From: Gemmatimonadota bacterium
GTDB taxonomy: Bacteria > Gemmatimonadota > Gemmatimonadetes > Longimicrobiales > Gaopeijiaceae
Assembly (NCBI GenBank): GCA_022827345.1
Contig: JAJDTB010000066.1
Location: 1 to 64,000 of the forward strand
DNA: 64,000 nucleotides
Direction of reading: 5' to 3'
How positions within the stretch are numbered: position 1 is the stretch's first letter; each line of letters begins with the position of its first letter. The notes beneath the pieces were generated by a model. It was not told the DNA's origin. It did not search any database and saw only the letters and a list, made by a program, of their open reading frames with translations. Shown here one piece after another: positions 1-9,302 of this stretch. A program made the position numbers and the translations under genes.

Positions 1-141
1 GCCTTCGTCGAGCGCTACAACAACGGCTGGCTTCTCCAGCGGCACGGGTACATGACCCCGGCCCGCGCCCGCGAGAAGCTCAGCCGAAAGGCGGCCTGAT
101 GTTTAGGCCGTCCACTTGTCCAGGAAACCGGAACCGGTACA
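1..141 (+). mobile_element. Right end of an IS3-family insertion sequence (3' end of orfB plus terminal repeat)
   Basis: Frame 1 reads the last 32 codons of an IS3-type integrase (bases 1-99), with the typical C-terminal FVERYNNGW and HGYMTPARARE patterns and a TGA stop. Bases about 115-141 resemble the terminal repeat of the orfA-containing IS fragment at 13.7 kb: its inverted complement matches at roughly 19 of 27 positions and has the IS3-type TG...CA ends. The junction with host DNA is placed at 141/142 because codons of the interrupted DrmA frame run intact to base 142. The rest of the element lies outside the window. Confidence 0.75.
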
Positions 142-1938
142 CATCGTCTGCAAGGTTTGTCTGGCCTGAGTGTCGCGGTTCGGCGTTACGCTTCCACCGA
201 CCCAGAGCCCGATGGTGATTCGCTGGCTTCCGAGGTCATAAACGCCTTCGCGACGTAAGTACTCGAGGGCGCAAATGAGCGACGACGCCCGTTGATACTG
301 CTGAGTCGTCAAGAGACGAAGCGTGTACCTCATCAAGACCACTGTTCCTGAGTCACCTCGTCTTCGCATGCGACGCCATATTATCGCAAACGCACTGAGT
401 CCCAAGTACGCTTCCGTCTTCCCGCCACCTGTGGGAAACCAAATGACATCCACCACCGAACGATCGGTGTTAGAGGGATCCATGATCGCGAGGAGATTCA
501 ATAGCACAAAAGCGAACTGAAATGGCCGCCATCTGTTGCCCACGCCCGTGTATCGCGGACGGTCGTAGGGGCGAGCAAGCACCAAGGTGGTGCCTCGCCG
601 TTTCCACTCGCGCGGCTTGGTTGAAAGCGCGTAGTGGAGTTGTTGCATCAGCATCGCACGATTCATCAATGCGAACGCCTTCCGGGCTTCCGGGTTGTCA
701 CAGAGCTGCTGGACGCCAGCTCGGATACGATCGAGACAAACTCGGGCACGGGCCATGTTCTCTCTCGCCGCGGGTAACAGTGCTTCAGGAATCTGGCCGG
801 GTGCATTGACCACTTCCTCAAGATTCTCGATCCAGGTCTCGTAGAGATCCGCCAAGCGGGCACCGCTCCTCGTGGAAAGCTGCTCGTCTTCAGCAAGTCT
901 CTCCATGTTCAAATCGATGTCTTCAAGGATCGTGGGGAAGATGGGAGCCACCTCGAATCCAGGCATGACCTCAGTTCTGATCAAATCTGTGGTCCCGCCA
1001 ACCGCATCTTCCCATTCGGGGGCGCACCCGTGGCCCACCGCATAGATTCGGCGGTGACGATATAGAAGCCGCATCATATTGCGCTCCGAGTCCGCCAGTG
1101 TTGCAGACAACGACGACTGACCCGCCGCTGGCTCGGCGCTGCCATGCTCGGGGTATTCCAGAAAGCACCGTTCACCATCCCCGCTGACGGAAAAGGAGCA
1201 CTGAAATAGACATGTCTCATTGCGTCTCGTGTTAGCAACAGTGTCGTTGATCAGCGTGAATGTGACGATGCGGGCGTCCATGGGGGTTCCGTGCAAGCCC
1301 GGCTCCCTGACGTAGACATGGAGCTTCATCTTGCATACATCGGTGCCAGTGTCTAAGGTCACCTCATGGATCCGACCCGAGAGAAGCTTGTCTCGCGTGA
1401 AATACTCCGTATGTCGGATTGGAATACGACGCCAGCCCCGATAGGCATGGACCTTTCCATCTTTGTCCGTCCAGCCTCTCTGCCCGGGAAGCTCCTCACT
1501 TTCATATCGACCTGCTTCTACGGTTATGACCAGCGTCTCTGGAAGACGGACGACTGCGGTCAATCCCATGCCGCTTGGCAAGTACTCGTTGGCCCTGTTG
1601 ATCTCCTGTTCAGTATCCGCTTCCGTCTGAATTTCTCCTGCCTCTTGGGCCCCGGCGCTGCCACTGTTGCCCGCCTCCTGCTGTCGACCCTCATCAACTT
1701 CCGGCGTATCCTGATCGTCTTGTTCTTGAACAACACTCCGGCGTGGAAACAGCACACCTGCGCCGTAGCGCATTCGCGGCGTGTCTGCAGCCCTCAGAAT
1801 CTCTTCACCACGGTAGCTTCGTGCCCCAATTCCCGTCTGGATGACCGGAAGGCCAGGCTGCGGCCCCACCAGTTCGCCTTTGAGAGCGTCAACTATGAAC
1901 TGCCGTACTTCCCTCGATCCAACCAACACTGTGGTCAT
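103..1938 (-). pseudogene. drmA: DISARM helicase DrmA, truncated by the IS3 insertion
   Basis: This is the N-terminal half of a DrmA-type SF2 helicase from a DISARM restriction/anti-phage system. The Walker A region WFPTGGGKTEAYLGL is at about residues 500-515, followed by VVLMRYTLRLLT and GLWVGGSVTPN, which are characteristic of DrmA. Full-length relatives are about 1100-1300 residues, so the DEAD-like Walker B and the second RecA domain are missing. The last 13 codons (from base 141 down) are read from the IS end. The preferred start is ATG 1938, which overlaps the upstream stop as TGATG and has AAAGG nine bases before it; ATG 1947 is also in frame. It is third in a minus-strand operon. It should not be functional as a helicase. 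Confidence 0.8.
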
Positions 1939-3692
1939 CAAAACCATCCTTTCAGCTTTCGGTCCATCGCTTGTAATGCAATGCTCTGTAGCCGCTCATG
2001 CAACAACACAATCAAGTGACTCCTGGCGCGGGACATCCCAACGTACATCAACGCCCTGTCGACATCCGAATCGAGTCTATCTACGTCACACAAGATCACC
2101 ACTGGACTCTCAAGGCCCTTGAAAGCATGAATGGTGGAGAACACTATCTCTGCTTCTTGGCCCTGCCGCGTGCCGGCGGACCTAATGTCCCTGCCTAGCA
2201 TCGAGACCACCGAGTTGGCCAAACGCCGACGAGACAGAATCACCACATCAGATTTGGACACACCGTCCTTGGCCAACGTATCCAGAATCGAGCGTAGTCT
2301 CTGCGCTTGGTGTTGTCGATTCCTCCAGTATCGATAGTCTACCGGTAGGCACTCCGAATTGTCCAGTCTGTAAGGCAATGAGTCGAACCCGGAGAGCAGG
2401 GCTGTCTCTTCACCTATCTTGTAGGTGTTTCGACAATTTCGGCTAAGCGGCGCCGTCGTATAGCGTTCTGGTTCGATGTATTGTGACAGCACTTCCTTCC
2501 AACCAAGCTCGAGACCGGAAAACAGCGCCTGCCTAGTGAAATCGCCCAGCATTGCCCACTGCCCTTCGCCCAGCCCACCTTTCATAGCTACCTCAAGAAC
2601 GCTGAGGACCGGATCCGCCATCAAGTCCTGGGCTTCGTCAACGATACACAGATCAGCTGTAACCCTCGATTCCAGTAAGGCAAGCTCTCCATACAGCGGA
2701 TAGACCTGGTTGAACAGTTGTTCGGAATCGTCCTTGGCTGCGCTCTCGGCCCGACGAAACTCCTCAGCGTTTTCGCCTTTCACAATCAAATCCCTAAGGT
2801 AGCGATGGAAACTCCCGGCAATGACAACGTTGGTGGGAAGAATCTCCGTGGCCCGGCGAGCGAGCCATTCGCCGAGAAGGCGATTGTAGCAGAGGAGAAG
2901 GATTGTTTCATAGCGCGGTGCCGCTCTTCTCGCGTATTCCAAAGCCAATAGGGTCTTGCCGGTACCGGCTGCCCCCTCGACCACGCACCGTGCGTTTCGC
3001 TCGAACAGGTCAAGTACATCGTACTGCTCCTCCGTGAGGCGGACGATCCGCTCTTCAGATCGGCGAATCGTCGTTGAGCGAGCAAGTGTGATGTCGAAGT
3101 CCGGCCTCAGATAGTTCCTCAGTCGTTTGATGTTCGTCGGGGTTGCCAGGGTAAGTTGTTGCGTCTTTTGCATGCGGCGCGCGTCATTCTTCACTGCCGC
3201 CATGATCGGGCCAGAAATCGGCCTCTGGAGAGCCTCAATGTCGATTACCTCCGGTGGATCATGCTCAGGATCACGCGGAAACCTGGTAACATCTGGAAGT
3301 ACCACCGCCGCGCCATAAACCATGGACGCGACACCAGAACCGGGGCCGAATTCCCGCTCTACAGCCCTCCGCAGGCCAAACATTCCCTCCCGGGCTTGTG
3401 CGATCGGTGATCGATTCAAGCGGTGCTCAAGCCCATGGCGATCGCGCGTGTACCAAATCCCTTCGCGGCAGCTAACTCCGCCGCCTTTCACTTCGAGGCA
3501 AATCACCCCTGCCTTCGGAATCAGGACGACGAAATCGATTTCGCCGTAGGGCTTCTTCCCCCGCCTGGCCAACCCGAGCGAGTGGAGAACAGTCCATTCC
3601 TCGGTGCGGGGATCCTCTCTTAAGCGGTCAAAGACGCGCTTCTCGGAGGGGGGTGTACCCGAATGCACCCTCGATGGGATCATTACGCTCAT
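1938..3692 (-). CDS. NERD-domain nuclease fused to a UvrD/PcrA-like SF1 helicase
   Basis: A 584-residue protein. Residues about 15-125 form a NERD domain with the E..D...EVK nuclease pattern (YGEIDFVVL, then ICLEVKGGG). An SF1 helicase core follows: Walker A EGAAGTGKTLLALE, Walker B LCIVDEAQDL, motif V IHAFKGLESPVVIL and motif VI YVGMSRARSHL. NERD-helicase fusions are common in defence islands and are expected to cut and unwind DNA. The gene starts 12 bases after the DrmE-like stop and overlaps the drmA start, so it belongs to the same operon. It is not one of the core DISARM genes, which makes its place between drmE and drmA notable. All catalytic motifs look intact. Confidence 0.8.
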   Translation of the reverse strand: MSVMIPSRVHSGTPPSEKRVFDRLREDPRTEEWTVLHSLGLARRGKKPYGEIDFVVLIPKAGVICLEVKGGGVSCREGIWYTRDRHGLEHRLNRSPIAQAREGMFGLRRAVEREFGPGSGVASMVYGAAVVLPDVTRFPRDPEHDPPEVIDIEALQRPISGPIMAAVKNDARRMQKTQQLTLATPTNIKRLRNYLRPDFDITLARSTTIRRSEERIVRLTEEQYDVLDLFERNARCVVEGAAGTGKTLLALEYARRAAPRYETILLLCYNRLLGEWLARRATEILPTNVVIAGSFHRYLRDLIVKGENAEEFRRAESAAKDDSEQLFNQVYPLYGELALLESRVTADLCIVDEAQDLMADPVLSVLEVAMKGGLGEGQWAMLGDFTRQALFSGLELGWKEVLSQYIEPERYTTAPLSRNCRNTYKIGEETALLSGFDSLPYRLDNSECLPVDYRYWRNRQHQAQRLRSILDTLAKDGVSKSDVVILSRRRLANSVVSMLGRDIRSAGTRQGQEAEIVFSTIHAFKGLESPVVILCDVDRLDSDVDRALMYVGMSRARSHLIVLLHERLQSIALQAMDRKLKGWF

Positions 3693-3704
3693 CGGATGTC
3701 GTCG

Positions 3705-6245
3705 TTAGTATCCATCGTCGGACAAGAATCGGTTGACCTCCCAGTGGGGACGAAGCTCCACGGCATCTCCAATGTCCTCTACCTCCACTACCCACGTAGC
3801 ACCGAGCGTCAATTCGATTTTGACCGGCGTCTCAATGACGGTACCAAGATGCTGTGGGAGTTCCGAACGCAGGAGGTCACTCAAACGCCGACCGGCACGG
3901 ATGTGTTCCCCACGGATGACACCGATCGCATTCCAGACGTCGTCCAATCTTTGCGCAAGGTCTTCGTGTTGACTCGCCCGCGCAATGATCTCCAAGTCAG
4001 TCTTCGATTGCGGTCCGATACGCTCGTCGTCGAAAAACCATGCTCGTACAGTAGCACGCGTCCGTTTTAACCCAGCTTGACGCAACAATCTCCAAGCACG
4101 CTCAGAATTCCATCCGAAGGATCCTAACGCTGCTCGCCACAACTCAGCCACGTCGCGAATGGCCGCATACTTGTCGACTCCCATTGCCATTCCCGCCATC
4201 GAGGAAATCAACCCGCGGTCGCTACGTTCTCTGAACAGGACCAAATCACCAATGCCAAGTTCCTTGGCAGCGACCAAGGGAACTCGCGGCAAGTCAAGCT
4301 CATCACCAAGAACCAGGTCCGTCACAACTGGGATCCTGTGGGAGTCGGTGAGATACGAGTAGCCATTCCCCAAGTACCCGACATACCTGGCTTCCCTCAA
4401 TTGAGAATCGTGAACCGGCCCATGATCGGGTCCCTTCTTGCGTCGGCGGAGAAGAGAGGAGACCGGATCGTCGTGATACTCGCGGCCACTAGGCATGTCA
4501 AACTCGCGTTCCCAGCTGGACCCCTTCTGCTGTGGCCATCCAGATAGTCCGGTGATCCGCTTGATCTGCCTTGCCGGACTCAGCAGGTCGGTTCGCACCT
4601 TGGTCCAACGCTTGACGAACGACGAGAGCCAGTGCTCTTCGAATGGATAGCAAAGAACATGGATCTCTTGTGCCGGGTATTCCGTAACGAGTCCCAACAT
4701 TCGGTCCCTTCCAAGCCACGAAGTGACGACCACGGAATCGTATGTTTCCGAAGACATCTCGGACGGCAGTAACACTGGAGCGTTAGAGTCGATGGAATCG
4801 AGAAACGAACGCACCTGGTTCAGTGCAAGCCTATTGCGAGCAACGACCGCGGAATGATTCGACGTCTTGAGCCGCTCGGCCAGTGCCTCGCCCTTCGCCA
4901 AACCCAGTTGTTGGGACCGCTGCAATTCACCGGCCAGCTTGAATGCACGTTCCAGCAGGTTGGCGACAGGAGCTGGCATCCACATGCGCTGGCTTCGCAT
5001 GGTGGACTGCAATTCCCGAATGGCTTCGCCCAGTGCCGTAACTGTCGGCGCGCACGGGCTGCCTACGCATTCCACCGCCGAGAGAAGGAAACGCCAAGTG
5101 AGGCCGCGCAGCTTCCCCATCTCTTCATCCGCCTCGCCAGACCAAGCTTGCTCAATCAGTTCGTGCAGTTTCTCGACCGGAGGATGACCGATCGTAATTG
5201 GTTCAATCTCGAGATCGATGGCGTTCTGAAGTCTGGCCTGCGTTTGGCGAAACAGTTCAGCTATGCTCTCTGTGCCCTCCGAAAGGGGCAGCACCGACTC
5301 TGGGTCGGGTGCCCATACCTCACATCCTCGATCGCTCAGCAGCCCTACCTCGGTCAGCTCCGAGTGATCGGCTACAATCAGCAGTCTGTAACTGCCGACA
5401 GCCTCGTCGAACGCCTGTGGATCCCTTGCAAGCCCTTTCGCCCCGTCCACGATCACTCTGCTTCCTTCGAGCGGCATGCGTCGACACGCCTCCGCCATCA
5501 GACCAACCGAATGAGTCACCGCGATGACTGGGGGTACGCTTGGATCCTTGGCCACGGTCCGTCCATTTCTCTGGATTCGCCCCCATGTTACCATTTCGGA
5601 TGCGTTGACCGCAGGGTGGGAGGAAGTGCTCAACAGCACCTCAAGTGCCACAGATCTCGTCCTTTGCTGAGGCGCCACCAGTATCACTTGGGTTCCGAAC
5701 AGGTCGACGTTGCCACCGGTTCTAACGCCAAGGAGTCTATCGAGCGGCGAAAGCTCCCATGGCGTTATCCGGGGGCTTCGCTTCGGCACCATTCCGCCAC
5801 CTTCGGTTGGAGTCAGCCGGAAGGCGTCTTCCTCCCTGAGGTGATGTATAGACCCGTCAGCAAGGTTCCTTAAGCGAATCCACCTCGTGCCATAGAGAGG
5901 TACTCCATCGCGGTCTACCTCCCAGAGTCGGTTCTCTGGAGCCAGTCTGACTCGTGTCCCAGGTATCAAGGTCATCGTCAGTCGGTCCTCCTCGAGGTCC
6001 GCAAATCTGTCCTTGACAGAGACGAGAGAGGCTGTGAGTGCCAATGCGAAAGCGAAACCATCCTTCGATGGCAGTACAACGCAAGTGGCTCCGGCATCGG
6101 CTTGTTCCAATGTGCTGAGCAGGGCACCGACAAAGCGGGGACACTTGACCGGCGACCCGCTGGACGTACTCATCAACAAGTCGTCCAGCAGCGGAGACTT
6201 CCCTGCGAGCTGCTCTGCTATGGCGTGAACCCACTGCTCACTCAT
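3705..6245 (-). CDS. drmE: DISARM DrmE-like protein
   Basis: About 846 residues from ATG 6245 (MSEQWVHA), with GGGAG about 13 bases upstream; the frame stays open to 6401, but that extension is low-complexity and unlikely to be coding. The length, the segment VDLFGTQVILVAPQQ, the VIVDGAKGLARDP stretch and the context (first gene of an operon ending in drmA) match DrmE of class 2 DISARM, whose biochemical role is unknown. No nuclease or transmembrane motif stands out. A region before the middle looks like a degenerate P-loop/helicase fold, but I cannot identify catalytic residues. The family call rests partly on neighbourhood; an unrelated defence ATPase is the main alternative. Confidence 0.55.
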   Translation of the reverse strand: MSEQWVHAIAEQLAGKSPLLDDLLMSTSSGSPVKCPRFVGALLSTLEQADAGATCVVLPSKDGFAFALALTASLVSVKDRFADLEEDRLTMTLIPGTRVRLAPENRLWEVDRDGVPLYGTRWIRLRNLADGSIHHLREEDAFRLTPTEGGGMVPKRSPRITPWELSPLDRLLGVRTGGNVDLFGTQVILVAPQQRTRSVALEVLLSTSSHPAVNASEMVTWGRIQRNGRTVAKDPSVPPVIAVTHSVGLMAEACRRMPLEGSRVIVDGAKGLARDPQAFDEAVGSYRLLIVADHSELTEVGLLSDRGCEVWAPDPESVLPLSEGTESIAELFRQTQARLQNAIDLEIEPITIGHPPVEKLHELIEQAWSGEADEEMGKLRGLTWRFLLSAVECVGSPCAPTVTALGEAIRELQSTMRSQRMWMPAPVANLLERAFKLAGELQRSQQLGLAKGEALAERLKTSNHSAVVARNRLALNQVRSFLDSIDSNAPVLLPSEMSSETYDSVVVTSWLGRDRMLGLVTEYPAQEIHVLCYPFEEHWLSSFVKRWTKVRTDLLSPARQIKRITGLSGWPQQKGSSWEREFDMPSGREYHDDPVSSLLRRRKKGPDHGPVHDSQLREARYVGYLGNGYSYLTDSHRIPVVTDLVLGDELDLPRVPLVAAKELGIGDLVLFRERSDRGLISSMAGMAMGVDKYAAIRDVAELWRAALGSFGWNSERAWRLLRQAGLKRTRATVRAWFFDDERIGPQSKTDLEIIARASQHEDLAQRLDDVWNAIGVIRGEHIRAGRRLSDLLRSELPQHLGTVIETPVKIELTLGATWVVEVEDIGDAVELRPHWEVNRFLSDDGY

Positions 6246-8177: not shown

Positions 8178-9302
8178 TCATCCTTCGGTAGGTGACTCAA
8201 AGTCATCTTCCACGACCGGTTGTTCGTCAAGCACCGCCGGTTCACTCTCTCGGACCGCGGACACTCCCGGAGCAACTTCGGGTTCGGATCGGAAAAGTTC
8301 CCCCTGAGGCGACCCGGCGAGCGCTGGAACCGGCGATGCGTCATCGAACACGATCTCGCGAAGCTCGGATGGCGTCTTTGGTTCCCGCCATTCGCCCGCA
8401 CCGCGCGCAACCAACCCGTCAAGCCCTCGGCCTCGCTCTCCGTTTGAACGGACATACACCGGCGCATAACGAAGCTTCCCCAGTTGCTCGGTCGCGCCCG
8501 CCCACGTGCCGCCATGTCCATGATCGGAGTTCACGACCAGCGCGGCATCCGCCAGCGCATAGATCTGCTTGTTGCGTTCCATCGCCTGCCAACCGCGGAA
8601 CCGGACCGCCGGATCGAAGGATGAAACCAGCACCAGCCGCCCGTCCATGAGCGGCTCGCGATTCCCGCGGTCGAGCGCCGCGCGCTCAAGGTTATTGCCC
8701 AGCACTCCGACCGCGCGCCCGCCCGCCTCAAGGGATCCCCGCATGGCCGCCTGATCGACGCCGCGGGCCCCACCCGAGACAATCTGCACCTGCGCCTCGG
8801 CGGCCAACTGGCCTACGCGTTCCGTGTACTCCGTCAGTTCCTCATTCACCTTTCGTGAGCCGACCACCGCCAGGCCGCCACCGTCCAAAGCGGCCCGGTC
8901 ACCGCAGCCGTAGAGCACCGGCGGCGCCTTGTTCCGCATCTTCTTCCGGAGCCGATCGGGATAGTCGCCGTCCGGTCTTGTCACCACCCAGATCGCACGC
9001 GCGCTCCAACGCTCCAGGGCCTGGGCCAGAAGGAACCCTCGTTCGAGAAGTCGGCGAACATCTTCCAGGGTTCGCCTGGTCTTCAACCCGGACCAGGCGT
9101 TGTCGAGCTCCCTCACGCCCTCGGGATCAAGGAGATCCGCGGGTTGCTTTTCGGTGTCGTGAAGGTGCCGCACGAGCTTGTTGTAGTCGCCGAGCGACAG
9201 AGGCCTGACGGACGGACGCGACCTGCCCGCCAGGAGTGGCGCCGTCAGCAGCAGGATCGCCTGGGCGTTGGGGCTTATGCCGTCAATCCTCACGTCCGGC
9301 AT
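8178..9302 (-). CDS. DprA/Smf-family DNA-processing protein (accessory type)
   Basis: A 374-residue Rossmann-fold protein. SPNAQAILLLTAPLLAG begins a small N-terminal domain. The DprA core includes PPVLYGCGD, LAVVGSRKV, QIVSGGARGVDQAAMRGSLEAGG and RNKQIYALADAALVV. Housekeeping DprA loads RecA on single-stranded DNA during transformation. This subtype, with its distinctive N-terminus and acidic variable tail (SEPAVLDEQPVVEDDFES), is the kind found in accessory islands. The DNA encoding the tail (8228-8288) is repeated at 85% identity at 12671-12731, outside any gene. No partner such as a topoisomerase or RecA-like gene is adjacent. Confidence 0.75.
   Translation of the reverse strand: MPDVRIDGISPNAQAILLLTAPLLAGRSRPSVRPLSLGDYNKLVRHLHDTEKQPADLLDPEGVRELDNAWSGLKTRRTLEDVRRLLERGFLLAQALERWSARAIWVVTRPDGDYPDRLRKKMRNKAPPVLYGCGDRAALDGGGLAVVGSRKVNEELTEYTERVGQLAAEAQVQIVSGGARGVDQAAMRGSLEAGGRAVGVLGNNLERAALDRGNREPLMDGRLVLVSSFDPAVRFRGWQAMERNKQIYALADAALVVNSDHGHGGTWAGATEQLGKLRYAPVYVRSNGERGRGLDGLVARGAGEWREPKTPSELREIVFDDASPVPALAGSPQGELFRSEPEVAPGVSAVRESEPAVLDEQPVVEDDFESPTEG

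What the first reader, a model, noticed from the sequence alone, without database searches (positions are those of the whole stretch)
103..6245. DISARM-like operon with a NERD-helicase between DrmE and DrmA
Three tightly spaced minus-strand genes (12-base gap, then a one-base overlap): DrmE-like, NERD plus SF1 helicase, DrmA. A NERD-helicase is not a core DISARM gene, and its place inside the operon suggests either a variant with an extra effector or a hybrid of two defence systems. DrmB, DrmC and a methyltransferase are not visible; they would lie beyond the IS.
Basis: partly seen in the sequence, partly recalled or inferred. Interest (0 to 1): 0.65.

Follow-up and report, generated by a model that had tools for sequence, protein, structure and literature searches.

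The report
DISARM variant with built-in nuclease-helicase
This is a broken copy of a widespread, apparently undescribed form of the bacterial anti-virus system DISARM in which a combined DNA-cutting and DNA-unwinding protein sits inside the operon and the usual cutting protein is absent, which suggests an answer to how such systems destroy viral DNA.

Summary
Three tightly spaced minus-strand genes encode a DrmE-family protein, a NERD-nuclease/SF1-helicase, and the N-terminal half of DrmA; an IS end (window 1-141) cuts DrmA, and the window's genome shows no DrmB. An intact copy in another genome of the same family reads DrmE, NERD-helicase (65% identical), DrmA, DrmB, then a convergent DrmMII-like cytosine methyltransferase; no DrmC. 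The NERD gene is no accident: 33 distinct loci (plasmids and genomes, at least eight phyla by record title) carry this kind of NERD-helicase on the same strand as DrmA and/or DrmB. In the DrmE-type subset DrmE is often split into two genes. None of the 33 has a detectable DrmC; 8 of 11 class 1 DISARM loci of the same phylum have one. Nuclease and helicase residues are intact in 34 of 34 (the 33 plus L035), and NERD and DrmA distances correlate (r 0.82-0.92). NERD-helicases joined DrmAB operons more than once. Best reading: a DrmC-less DISARM variant whose nuclease arm is the NERD-helicase. It fails the published class 2 definition (DrmC required). No description turned up in the searches run. 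The window's copy is probably dead. Function is untested.

The parts
1..141 (+). end of an insertion sequence (C-terminal end of a transposase frame; IS3-like by recollection) that truncates drmA; also the contig edge
   Evidence: 141 bases identical to the start of contig C51 of the same genome, then divergence; 95% match on C54
142..1938 (-). drmA, N-terminal ~600 of ~1150 residues, Walker A TGGGKT kept, DExH half lost; last residues of the open frame (to 103) come from the IS
   Evidence: NF038325 387 bits over model 1-575/1165; motif scan; junction
1938..3692 (-). NERD nuclease + SF1 (UvrD-like) helicase, 584 aa
   Evidence: Pfam NERD 41.0 bits, UvrD_C_2 41.8 bits; PADLOC RTasNERD-Hel 113 bits; catalytic residues E17, E51, D53, E67, K69, Q99, K246, D352, E353
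3351..3644 (-). NERD (PD-(D/E)xK-type) nuclease domain of that protein, residues 17-114
   Evidence: Pfam PF08378 match
1995..3038 (-). SF1 helicase region, residues ~219-566
   Evidence: Pfam/PADLOC matches, Walker A GAAGTGKT at residue 240, DEAQD at 352
3705..6245 (-). DrmE-family protein, 846 aa
   Evidence: NF038316 150.9 bits, cut-off 80; Pfam DrmE_C 23.6 bits, just under its cut-off of 27
4581..4904 (-). RecA2-like lobe of the DrmE-family protein, residues 448-555
   Evidence: AlphaFold2 model, local pLDDT mostly 65-90; VIA-align Z 10.9, rmsd 2.2 over 100 residues to the RecA2 domain of Hera

Best explanation
The operon is the 5' part of a DrmC-less DISARM variant: drmE, nerd-helicase, drmA, drmB, plus a nearby DrmMII-like cytosine methyltransferase. 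DrmAB acts as in known DISARM: a complex that is shut by a trigger loop until it loads on single-stranded 5' ends of incoming DNA, then translocates. The NERD-SF1 protein is the nuclease arm: a motor carrying a PD-(D/E)xK nuclease that follows or is recruited by activated DrmAB and degrades the unwound phage DNA, the job guessed for DrmC. DrmE looks like a helicase-shaped protein without ATPase motifs and may be the adaptor or sensor. Methylation by the nearby enzyme marks self DNA. Shown by sequence: gene identities, conserved linkage, DrmC absence, intact catalytic residues, co-inheritance. Inferred: physical complex, recruitment, DNA degradation, DrmE's role, self-marking. In this genome the system is probably inactive because an IS splits drmA and drmB is not found.
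For: Intact operon in a same-family genome. Found in plasmids (10 of 20 plasmid records that match the window's NERD protein hold a DrmA match next to it) and in 24 of 80 NERD-helicase loci of genome contigs. Same strand in 33 of 33; stop-to-stop frames within 4 bases of each other or overlapping in 26 of 33, the exceptions being five loci with a 2.2-2.9 kb insert, one such contig that holds DrmB only (L047), and L154 (109 bases). DrmC 0 of 33, 30 of them with at least 1.2 kb read beyond DrmB, against 8 of 11 class 1 loci of the phylum. Catalytic residues of both activities in 34 of 34 linked NERD proteins. Distances DrmA-NERD r = 0.82 (E-type, n = 12) and 0.92 (UvrD type, n = 9), p = 0.0002; DrmA-DrmB 0.90 (n = 10) and 0.95 (n = 9). 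The G045 DrmA matches the solved Serratia DrmA (480 bits), and an acidic stretch lies where the trigger loop is. Bravo et al. 2022 (passages): DrmC dispensable, often missing, the nuclease step unexplained.
Against: DrmC is also missing from the ten DrmA loci of the same large clade that lack NERD (L015-L018, L020, L150, L153, L160-L162), so DrmC loss follows the DrmA lineage and NERD is not simply 'in place of' it. Two DrmE-DrmA-DrmB loci inside the NERD clade have no NERD gene (L020, L162), so it is not strictly required. Most NERD-helicases of the 80 loci (56) show no DrmAB, though many lie on short contigs; L034 inside the E-type NERD clade is free-standing on a 3.3 Mb contig. No interaction or activity data.
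Confidence: 0.62

Rival explanations
1. The NERD-helicase is a self-contained defence gene (as Nhi is said to be; recalled) that rides in the operon as a second layer; DrmAB works without it.
For: NERD-helicases occur alone (56 of 80 loci show no DrmAB; L034) and with other defence modules (PADLOC RTasNERD-Hel). DrmE-DrmA-DrmB operons without NERD exist (L020, L162).
Against: Co-inheritance with DrmA nearly as tight as DrmB's, tree congruence, placement between drmE and drmA with a one-base overlap.
Confidence: 0.2
2. The NERD-helicase limits self-damage or cleans up stalled DrmAB-DNA complexes (repair or regulatory role) rather than attacking phage DNA.
For: SF1 helicase partners without NERD (UvrD, short SF1/AAA proteins) also sit next to DrmAB in the same DrmA clade, so the motor may matter more than the nuclease.
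Against: Nuclease residues invariant in 34 of 34 linked proteins.
Confidence: 0.12
3. In this genome it is only a decayed remnant with no present function.
For: drmA cut by an IS; no DrmB and no other convincing DrmA piece in a genome of 97% completeness.
Against: The remaining frames are intact; the missing part could lie in an assembly gap at the IS. This concerns the copy, not the family, and can be true together with the best explanation.
Confidence: 0.7

Closest known systems
DISARM class 2 (DrmA, DrmB, DrmC, DrmE, DrmMII; definition in the PADLOC paper PMC9252829, passages read)
   Same: DrmA, DrmB, a DrmE-family protein, a DrmMII-like cytosine methyltransferase nearby (G045)
   Different: no DrmC; NERD-SF1 gene between drmE and drmA; DrmE fails the strict equivalog; methyltransferase convergent, not in the operon; DrmA just below NCBI's DrmA cut-off
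DISARM class 1 (DrmD, DrmMI, DrmA, DrmB, DrmC; e.g. L111, L140, L141, L158, L159)
   Same: DrmA and DrmB
   Different: no DrmD, DrmMI or DrmC; DrmA in a separate branch
TALON (Bell et al. 2025, PMC12458937)
   Same: YprA-family helicase with a NERD-type nuclease in one operon
   Different: TALON has an ARMADA-like YprA with its own fused domains, TPR-CSD and TBP genes; here DrmA and DrmB are separate DISARM-type genes and NERD is fused to an SF1 helicase
ARMADA type II (same paper)
   Same: YprA-family helicase plus an SF1 (GajB-like) helicase in the operon
   Different: ARMADA has a BrxHII-like helicase, a PglX-like methyltransferase and a RelE-like domain on the SF1 protein
Free NERD-helicases and RTasNERD-Hel (PADLOC PDLC03813)
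   Same: same domain layout; 113 bits over residues 1-565
   Different: partners are not DrmAB

Membership tests
DISARM class 2 (PADLOC definition) | DrmA | tested here: met
   Window N-half NF038325 387 bits; G045 933 bits against a cut-off of 950, PADLOC DrmA 712 bits. Family met, NCBI equivalog cut-off just missed.
DISARM class 2 (PADLOC definition) | DrmB | tested here: met
   Met in the intact relative G045, NF038324 455 bits, cut-off 240; not found in the window's own genome.
DISARM class 2 (PADLOC definition) | DrmC (PLD nuclease) | tested here: not met
   No DrmC profile hit in 33 of 33 NERD-linked loci; the same profile gives 84 bits or more in 12 other loci, 9 of which supplied its seeds. 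In the window itself the place where drmC would lie is beyond the contig edge.
DISARM class 2 (PADLOC definition) | DrmE | tested here: met
   Family level only: NF038316 150.9 and 180 bits, cut-off 80. Equivalog NF038323 not met (16.4 and 21.4 against 250).
DISARM class 2 (PADLOC definition) | DrmMII | tested here: inconclusive
   G045 has a cytosine methyltransferase ~500 bp beyond drmB on the other strand; its 364-aa part matches PADLOC DrmMII best (121.7 bits) with a general type II MTase close behind (110.8). Not in the window.
DISARM class 1 | DrmD and DrmMI | tested here: not met
   Absent from G045's operon and from the NERD-linked loci by local profiles with one seed each; L037 has a weak DrmD-like hit (56 bits) on the other strand.
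TALON | TPR-CSD and TBP genes, ARMADA-like YprA | not tested
   No profile run for TPR-CSD or TBP; DrmA matches DISARM profiles.
NERD nuclease family (PF08378) | curated Pfam score and PD-(D/E)xK residues | tested here: met
   41.0 bits, cut-off 22.1; D53, E67, K69 in 34 of 34 linked proteins
Anti-phage function | protection against phage | not testable with these tools
   needs experiment

The most novel reading that the evidence does not exclude
DISARM has a large further branch without DrmC in which SF1 helicase-nucleases of the NERD kind were recruited several times as the DNA-destroying arm, in at least four layouts (full or split DrmE upstream; sacsin-like ATPase-helicase upstream; UvrD upstream with NERD after drmB; short SF1/AAA protein between drmB and NERD), and DrmE is a helicase-shaped protein without ATPase motifs that links DrmAB to the nuclease.
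Probability: 0.45. Interest if true: 0.72.

Novelty: new variant of a known kind. Interest (0 to 1): 0.58.

Why it matters
How DISARM destroys DNA is open: the candidate nuclease DrmC is dispensable and often missing, and Bravo et al. call the nuclease step a mystery. Operons that carry a nuclease-helicase with intact catalytic residues and no DrmC make that question directly testable by point mutation. The layouts also show that annotation misses this branch: in the ten NERD-linked plasmid records the DrmA gene is named 'helicase-related protein' or 'DNA helicase', or has no name, and never DrmA.

Tried and rejected
Canonical class 2 DISARM: rejected, DrmC tested and absent. ARMADA/TALON: only the helicase family is shared. 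'NERD replaces DrmC one for one': not kept, since DrmC is missing from the whole DrmA branch, with or without NERD. Looking for the missing half in the window's genome: no DrmB, only a weak DrmA hit on C25. Plasmid search with the DrmE protein: no match. Viral contigs with the NERD alignment: two weak partial matches, no use. A motif regex for PLD proteins found only 2 of 12 DrmC loci, so it is no control and I do not use it. DrmE fold: the model of the whole protein is poor (mean pLDDT 63, pTM 0.34) and Foldseek gave nothing under E 0.001; only the 448-555 lobe has a convincing match. The N-terminal half (split form, L040) gave Z up to 6.7 only, mostly an SH3/Tudor-like barrel at 68-165: inconclusive, so 'helicase-shaped' rests on one lobe plus the lack of Walker A/DExx motifs (the single Walker A-like string in the window protein lies near its first residues and is absent from G045; a DE string at residue 645 is also unlike G045). 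Rows dropped before counts: short duplicates of the same places (L001, L003, L004, L126, L128, L133-L138 and the other short search loci L114-L132 that were re-fetched longer); from the DrmA tree also L111, L146 and L148 (broken or partial DrmA); L047 and L087 hold no DrmA. Sampling is biased: the 80 genome loci were fetched with NERD seeds picked because they sit beside DrmAB; the plasmid and phylum samples were not. Of the 10 plasmid records with both genes I read the annotation of 5; the 26 DrmA records not listed were not checked. The original DISARM paper (Ofir 2018) is not held, so its text was not seen.
Full report
What is in the window. The window is the first 64 kb of contig C60 of a 4.8 Mb genome in 75 contigs. 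On its left edge lie three minus-strand genes in transcription order drmE-like (3705-6245), nerd-helicase (1938-3692), drmA (1938 down to the IS). The families are firm: DrmE family NF038316 150.9 bits (cut-off 80), NERD 41.0 bits (cut-off 22.1) with UvrD_C_2 41.8 bits (cut-off 27.4), and DrmA NF038325 387 bits over the N-terminal half of the model. Spacing is 12 bases, then a one-base TGATG overlap. DrmA stops after about 600 of 1150 residues because an IS end covers window 1-141; the same 141 bases start contig C51. The genome has no DrmB and no other convincing DrmA piece, so this copy is either dead or split over an assembly gap.

The intact form. Among 395 genomes of the phylum, 4 match the DrmE-like protein, the window's own genome included: one other at full length (G045, 51% identity) and two by short weak matches (E about 2e-4). 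G045, of the same family, has drmE-like (853 aa), nerd-helicase (65% identical to the window's), drmA (1153 aa), drmB (624 aa) in one run, then a convergent cytosine methyltransferase whose best PADLOC match is DrmMII. There is no DrmC beside it; the one G045 match over the DrmC cut-off (170 bits) belongs to a separate class 1 DISARM on contig C23 (L111).

How general it is. The window's NERD protein matches 20 plasmid records; in 10 of the 20 a DrmA match lies next to it (coordinates; some are near-copies, and one pair meets across the record start). Annotated stretches of five were read (Rhodococcus opacus, Deinococcus gobiensis, Azospirillum ramasamyi, two Rhizobium). A scan of genome contigs with seven such proteins returned 80 loci, of which 24 hold DrmA and/or DrmB; L035 also has both DrmE halves and NERD where its contig ends. 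Hosts by record title include Actinomycetota, Pseudomonadota, Acidobacteriota, Verrucomicrobiota, Chloroflexota, a melainabacterial Cyanobacteriota (Gastranaerophilales) and a Mollicutes MAG, besides a Deinococcota plasmid; the phylum names are partly recalled. In the phylum survey of DrmA (18 of 395 genomes, 21 loci, all neighbourhoods read), 11 loci are class 1 or placed there by DrmC or the DrmA tree, 4 carry NERD, 2 have a short SF1/AAA protein without NERD, and 4 are a deep DrmE-bearing branch.

Layouts. (1) Full-length DrmE, NERD, DrmA, DrmB: window, G045, L031 (46% identical NERD; drmA runs off the contig). (2) Two genes in place of drmE, then NERD, DrmA, DrmB: nine loci, one of them (L152) by weak matches. 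The second gene aligns with the C-terminal half of DrmE (hhalign E 9.5e-21, probability 99), the first with the N-terminal half (E 1.4e-4, probability 53), so drmE is split. (3) A ~1550-aa protein with a sacsin-type ATPase domain and a RadD-like helicase region, then NERD, DrmA, DrmB: three loci. (4) DrmA, DrmB, NERD, mostly with a UvrD helicase upstream: ten loci, one holding DrmB only. (5) DrmA, DrmB, a short SF1/AAA protein, another gene, NERD: six loci, one holding DrmB only. Two loci (L010, L154) fit none of these. Cytosine methyltransferase and Vsr genes are common nearby.

DrmC. A profile from nine DrmC proteins finds DrmC in 8 of 11 class 1 loci of the phylum and in four annotated plasmid loci, but in 0 of 33 NERD-linked loci, 30 of which extend at least 1.2 kb past DrmB (Fisher p about 2e-6 for 0/30 against 8/11, and 0.026 for 0/4 against 8/11 within the phylum; loci are related, so these p-values are optimistic). 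But the ten other loci of that DrmA branch, without NERD, also lack DrmC. DrmC loss is thus a trait of the branch, and the NERD-helicase is the commonest nuclease found in it here, not a proven swap.

Trees. In a tree of 58 DrmA proteins (quick search, LG+G4) the full-DrmE group is one clade (SH-aLRT 99) inside a clade of 14 with the split-DrmE loci and two NERD-less DrmE loci (99); the class 1 rows lie outside a branch of 41 (support 91). In a tree of 92 NERD proteins the linked ones fall in groups that match the layouts, and the linked/free label needs 7 changes. Most UvrD-type NERD proteins sit in the other half of the tree among free ones, so recruitment happened more than once. Distance matrices of DrmA and NERD correlate at r 0.82 (E-type, 12 loci), 0.92 (UvrD type, 9) and 0.83 (all 31), near the DrmA-DrmB values of 0.90, 0.95 and 0.93.

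Mechanism. The NERD protein keeps the nuclease residues E17, D53, E67, K69 and Q99 and the helicase residues K246, D352, E353 in 34 of 34 linked proteins. G045 DrmA matches the solved Serratia DrmA at 480 bits, keeps TGGGKT and DELH, and has an acidic stretch where the trigger loop (Serratia 176-232) lies. In the published model (Bravo 2022, passages) DrmAB opens on 5'-overhang DNA and the nuclease step is unknown. I propose that NERD-SF1 performs it. DrmE shows a RecA2-like lobe (Z 10.9, rmsd 2.2, 100 residues) and no conserved Walker A or DExx motif. A helicase-shaped adaptor is therefore plausible, but the N-terminal lobe is unresolved.

Known or not. Seven full-text searches touched this; none listed a paper that I could see to describe a NERD gene in a DISARM operon. 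Bell et al. 2025 (abstract, passages and sections 7-8 read) report NERD in TALON in the passages found. An eighth search for PADLOC-style names found no paper. Supplements and the 2018 DISARM paper were not seen, so prior mention cannot be excluded. NCBI already has a 'DrmE family' model wider than DISARM DrmE, and PADLOC holds NERD-helicase profiles, so the parts are known; the system layout appears not to be.

Noticed in passing
L057:5238-16445, L064:5149-16388, L065:5301-16466: DrmAB-NERD operons led by a ~1550-aa protein with a sacsin-type ATPase domain and a RadD-like helicase region; in Sphingomonas naphthae (L013) a DUF3883 protein of similar size precedes a NERD-helicase without DrmAB.
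   Followed up: partly
L045, L050, L060, L066, L080 (also L150, L153): DrmA-DrmB followed by a ~400-aa SF1/AAA protein and an uncharacterised gene before NERD; L150 and L153 have a transposase-like gene (by eye) where the next gene should be.
   Followed up: partly
L112, L149, L151, L155: A deep DrmA branch in the same phylum with an upstream gene of DrmE size (DrmE family 136 bits in L112) and, in L149 and L155, weak DrmC-profile hits.
   Followed up: partly
L111 and L146 (G045 C23, G224 C15): Two genomes share class 1 DISARM loci with equal profile scores whose drmA each bears one in-frame stop (TAA).
   Followed up: no
L160:3697-6102, L161:3613-5991: ~800-aa proteins directly upstream of DrmA-DrmB in Lactiplantibacillus and Haliscomenobacter plasmids, in the DrmE place but below detection by DrmE models.
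   Followed up: no
window 8178-9302 (-): DprA-like (DNA_processg_A, 119 bits) gene close to the operon.
   Followed up: no
L016:4117-7938: A 1273-aa protein with sigma-70 regions 2-4 sits directly upstream of DrmA-DrmB in Streptomyces fungicidicus plasmid p1.
   Followed up: no
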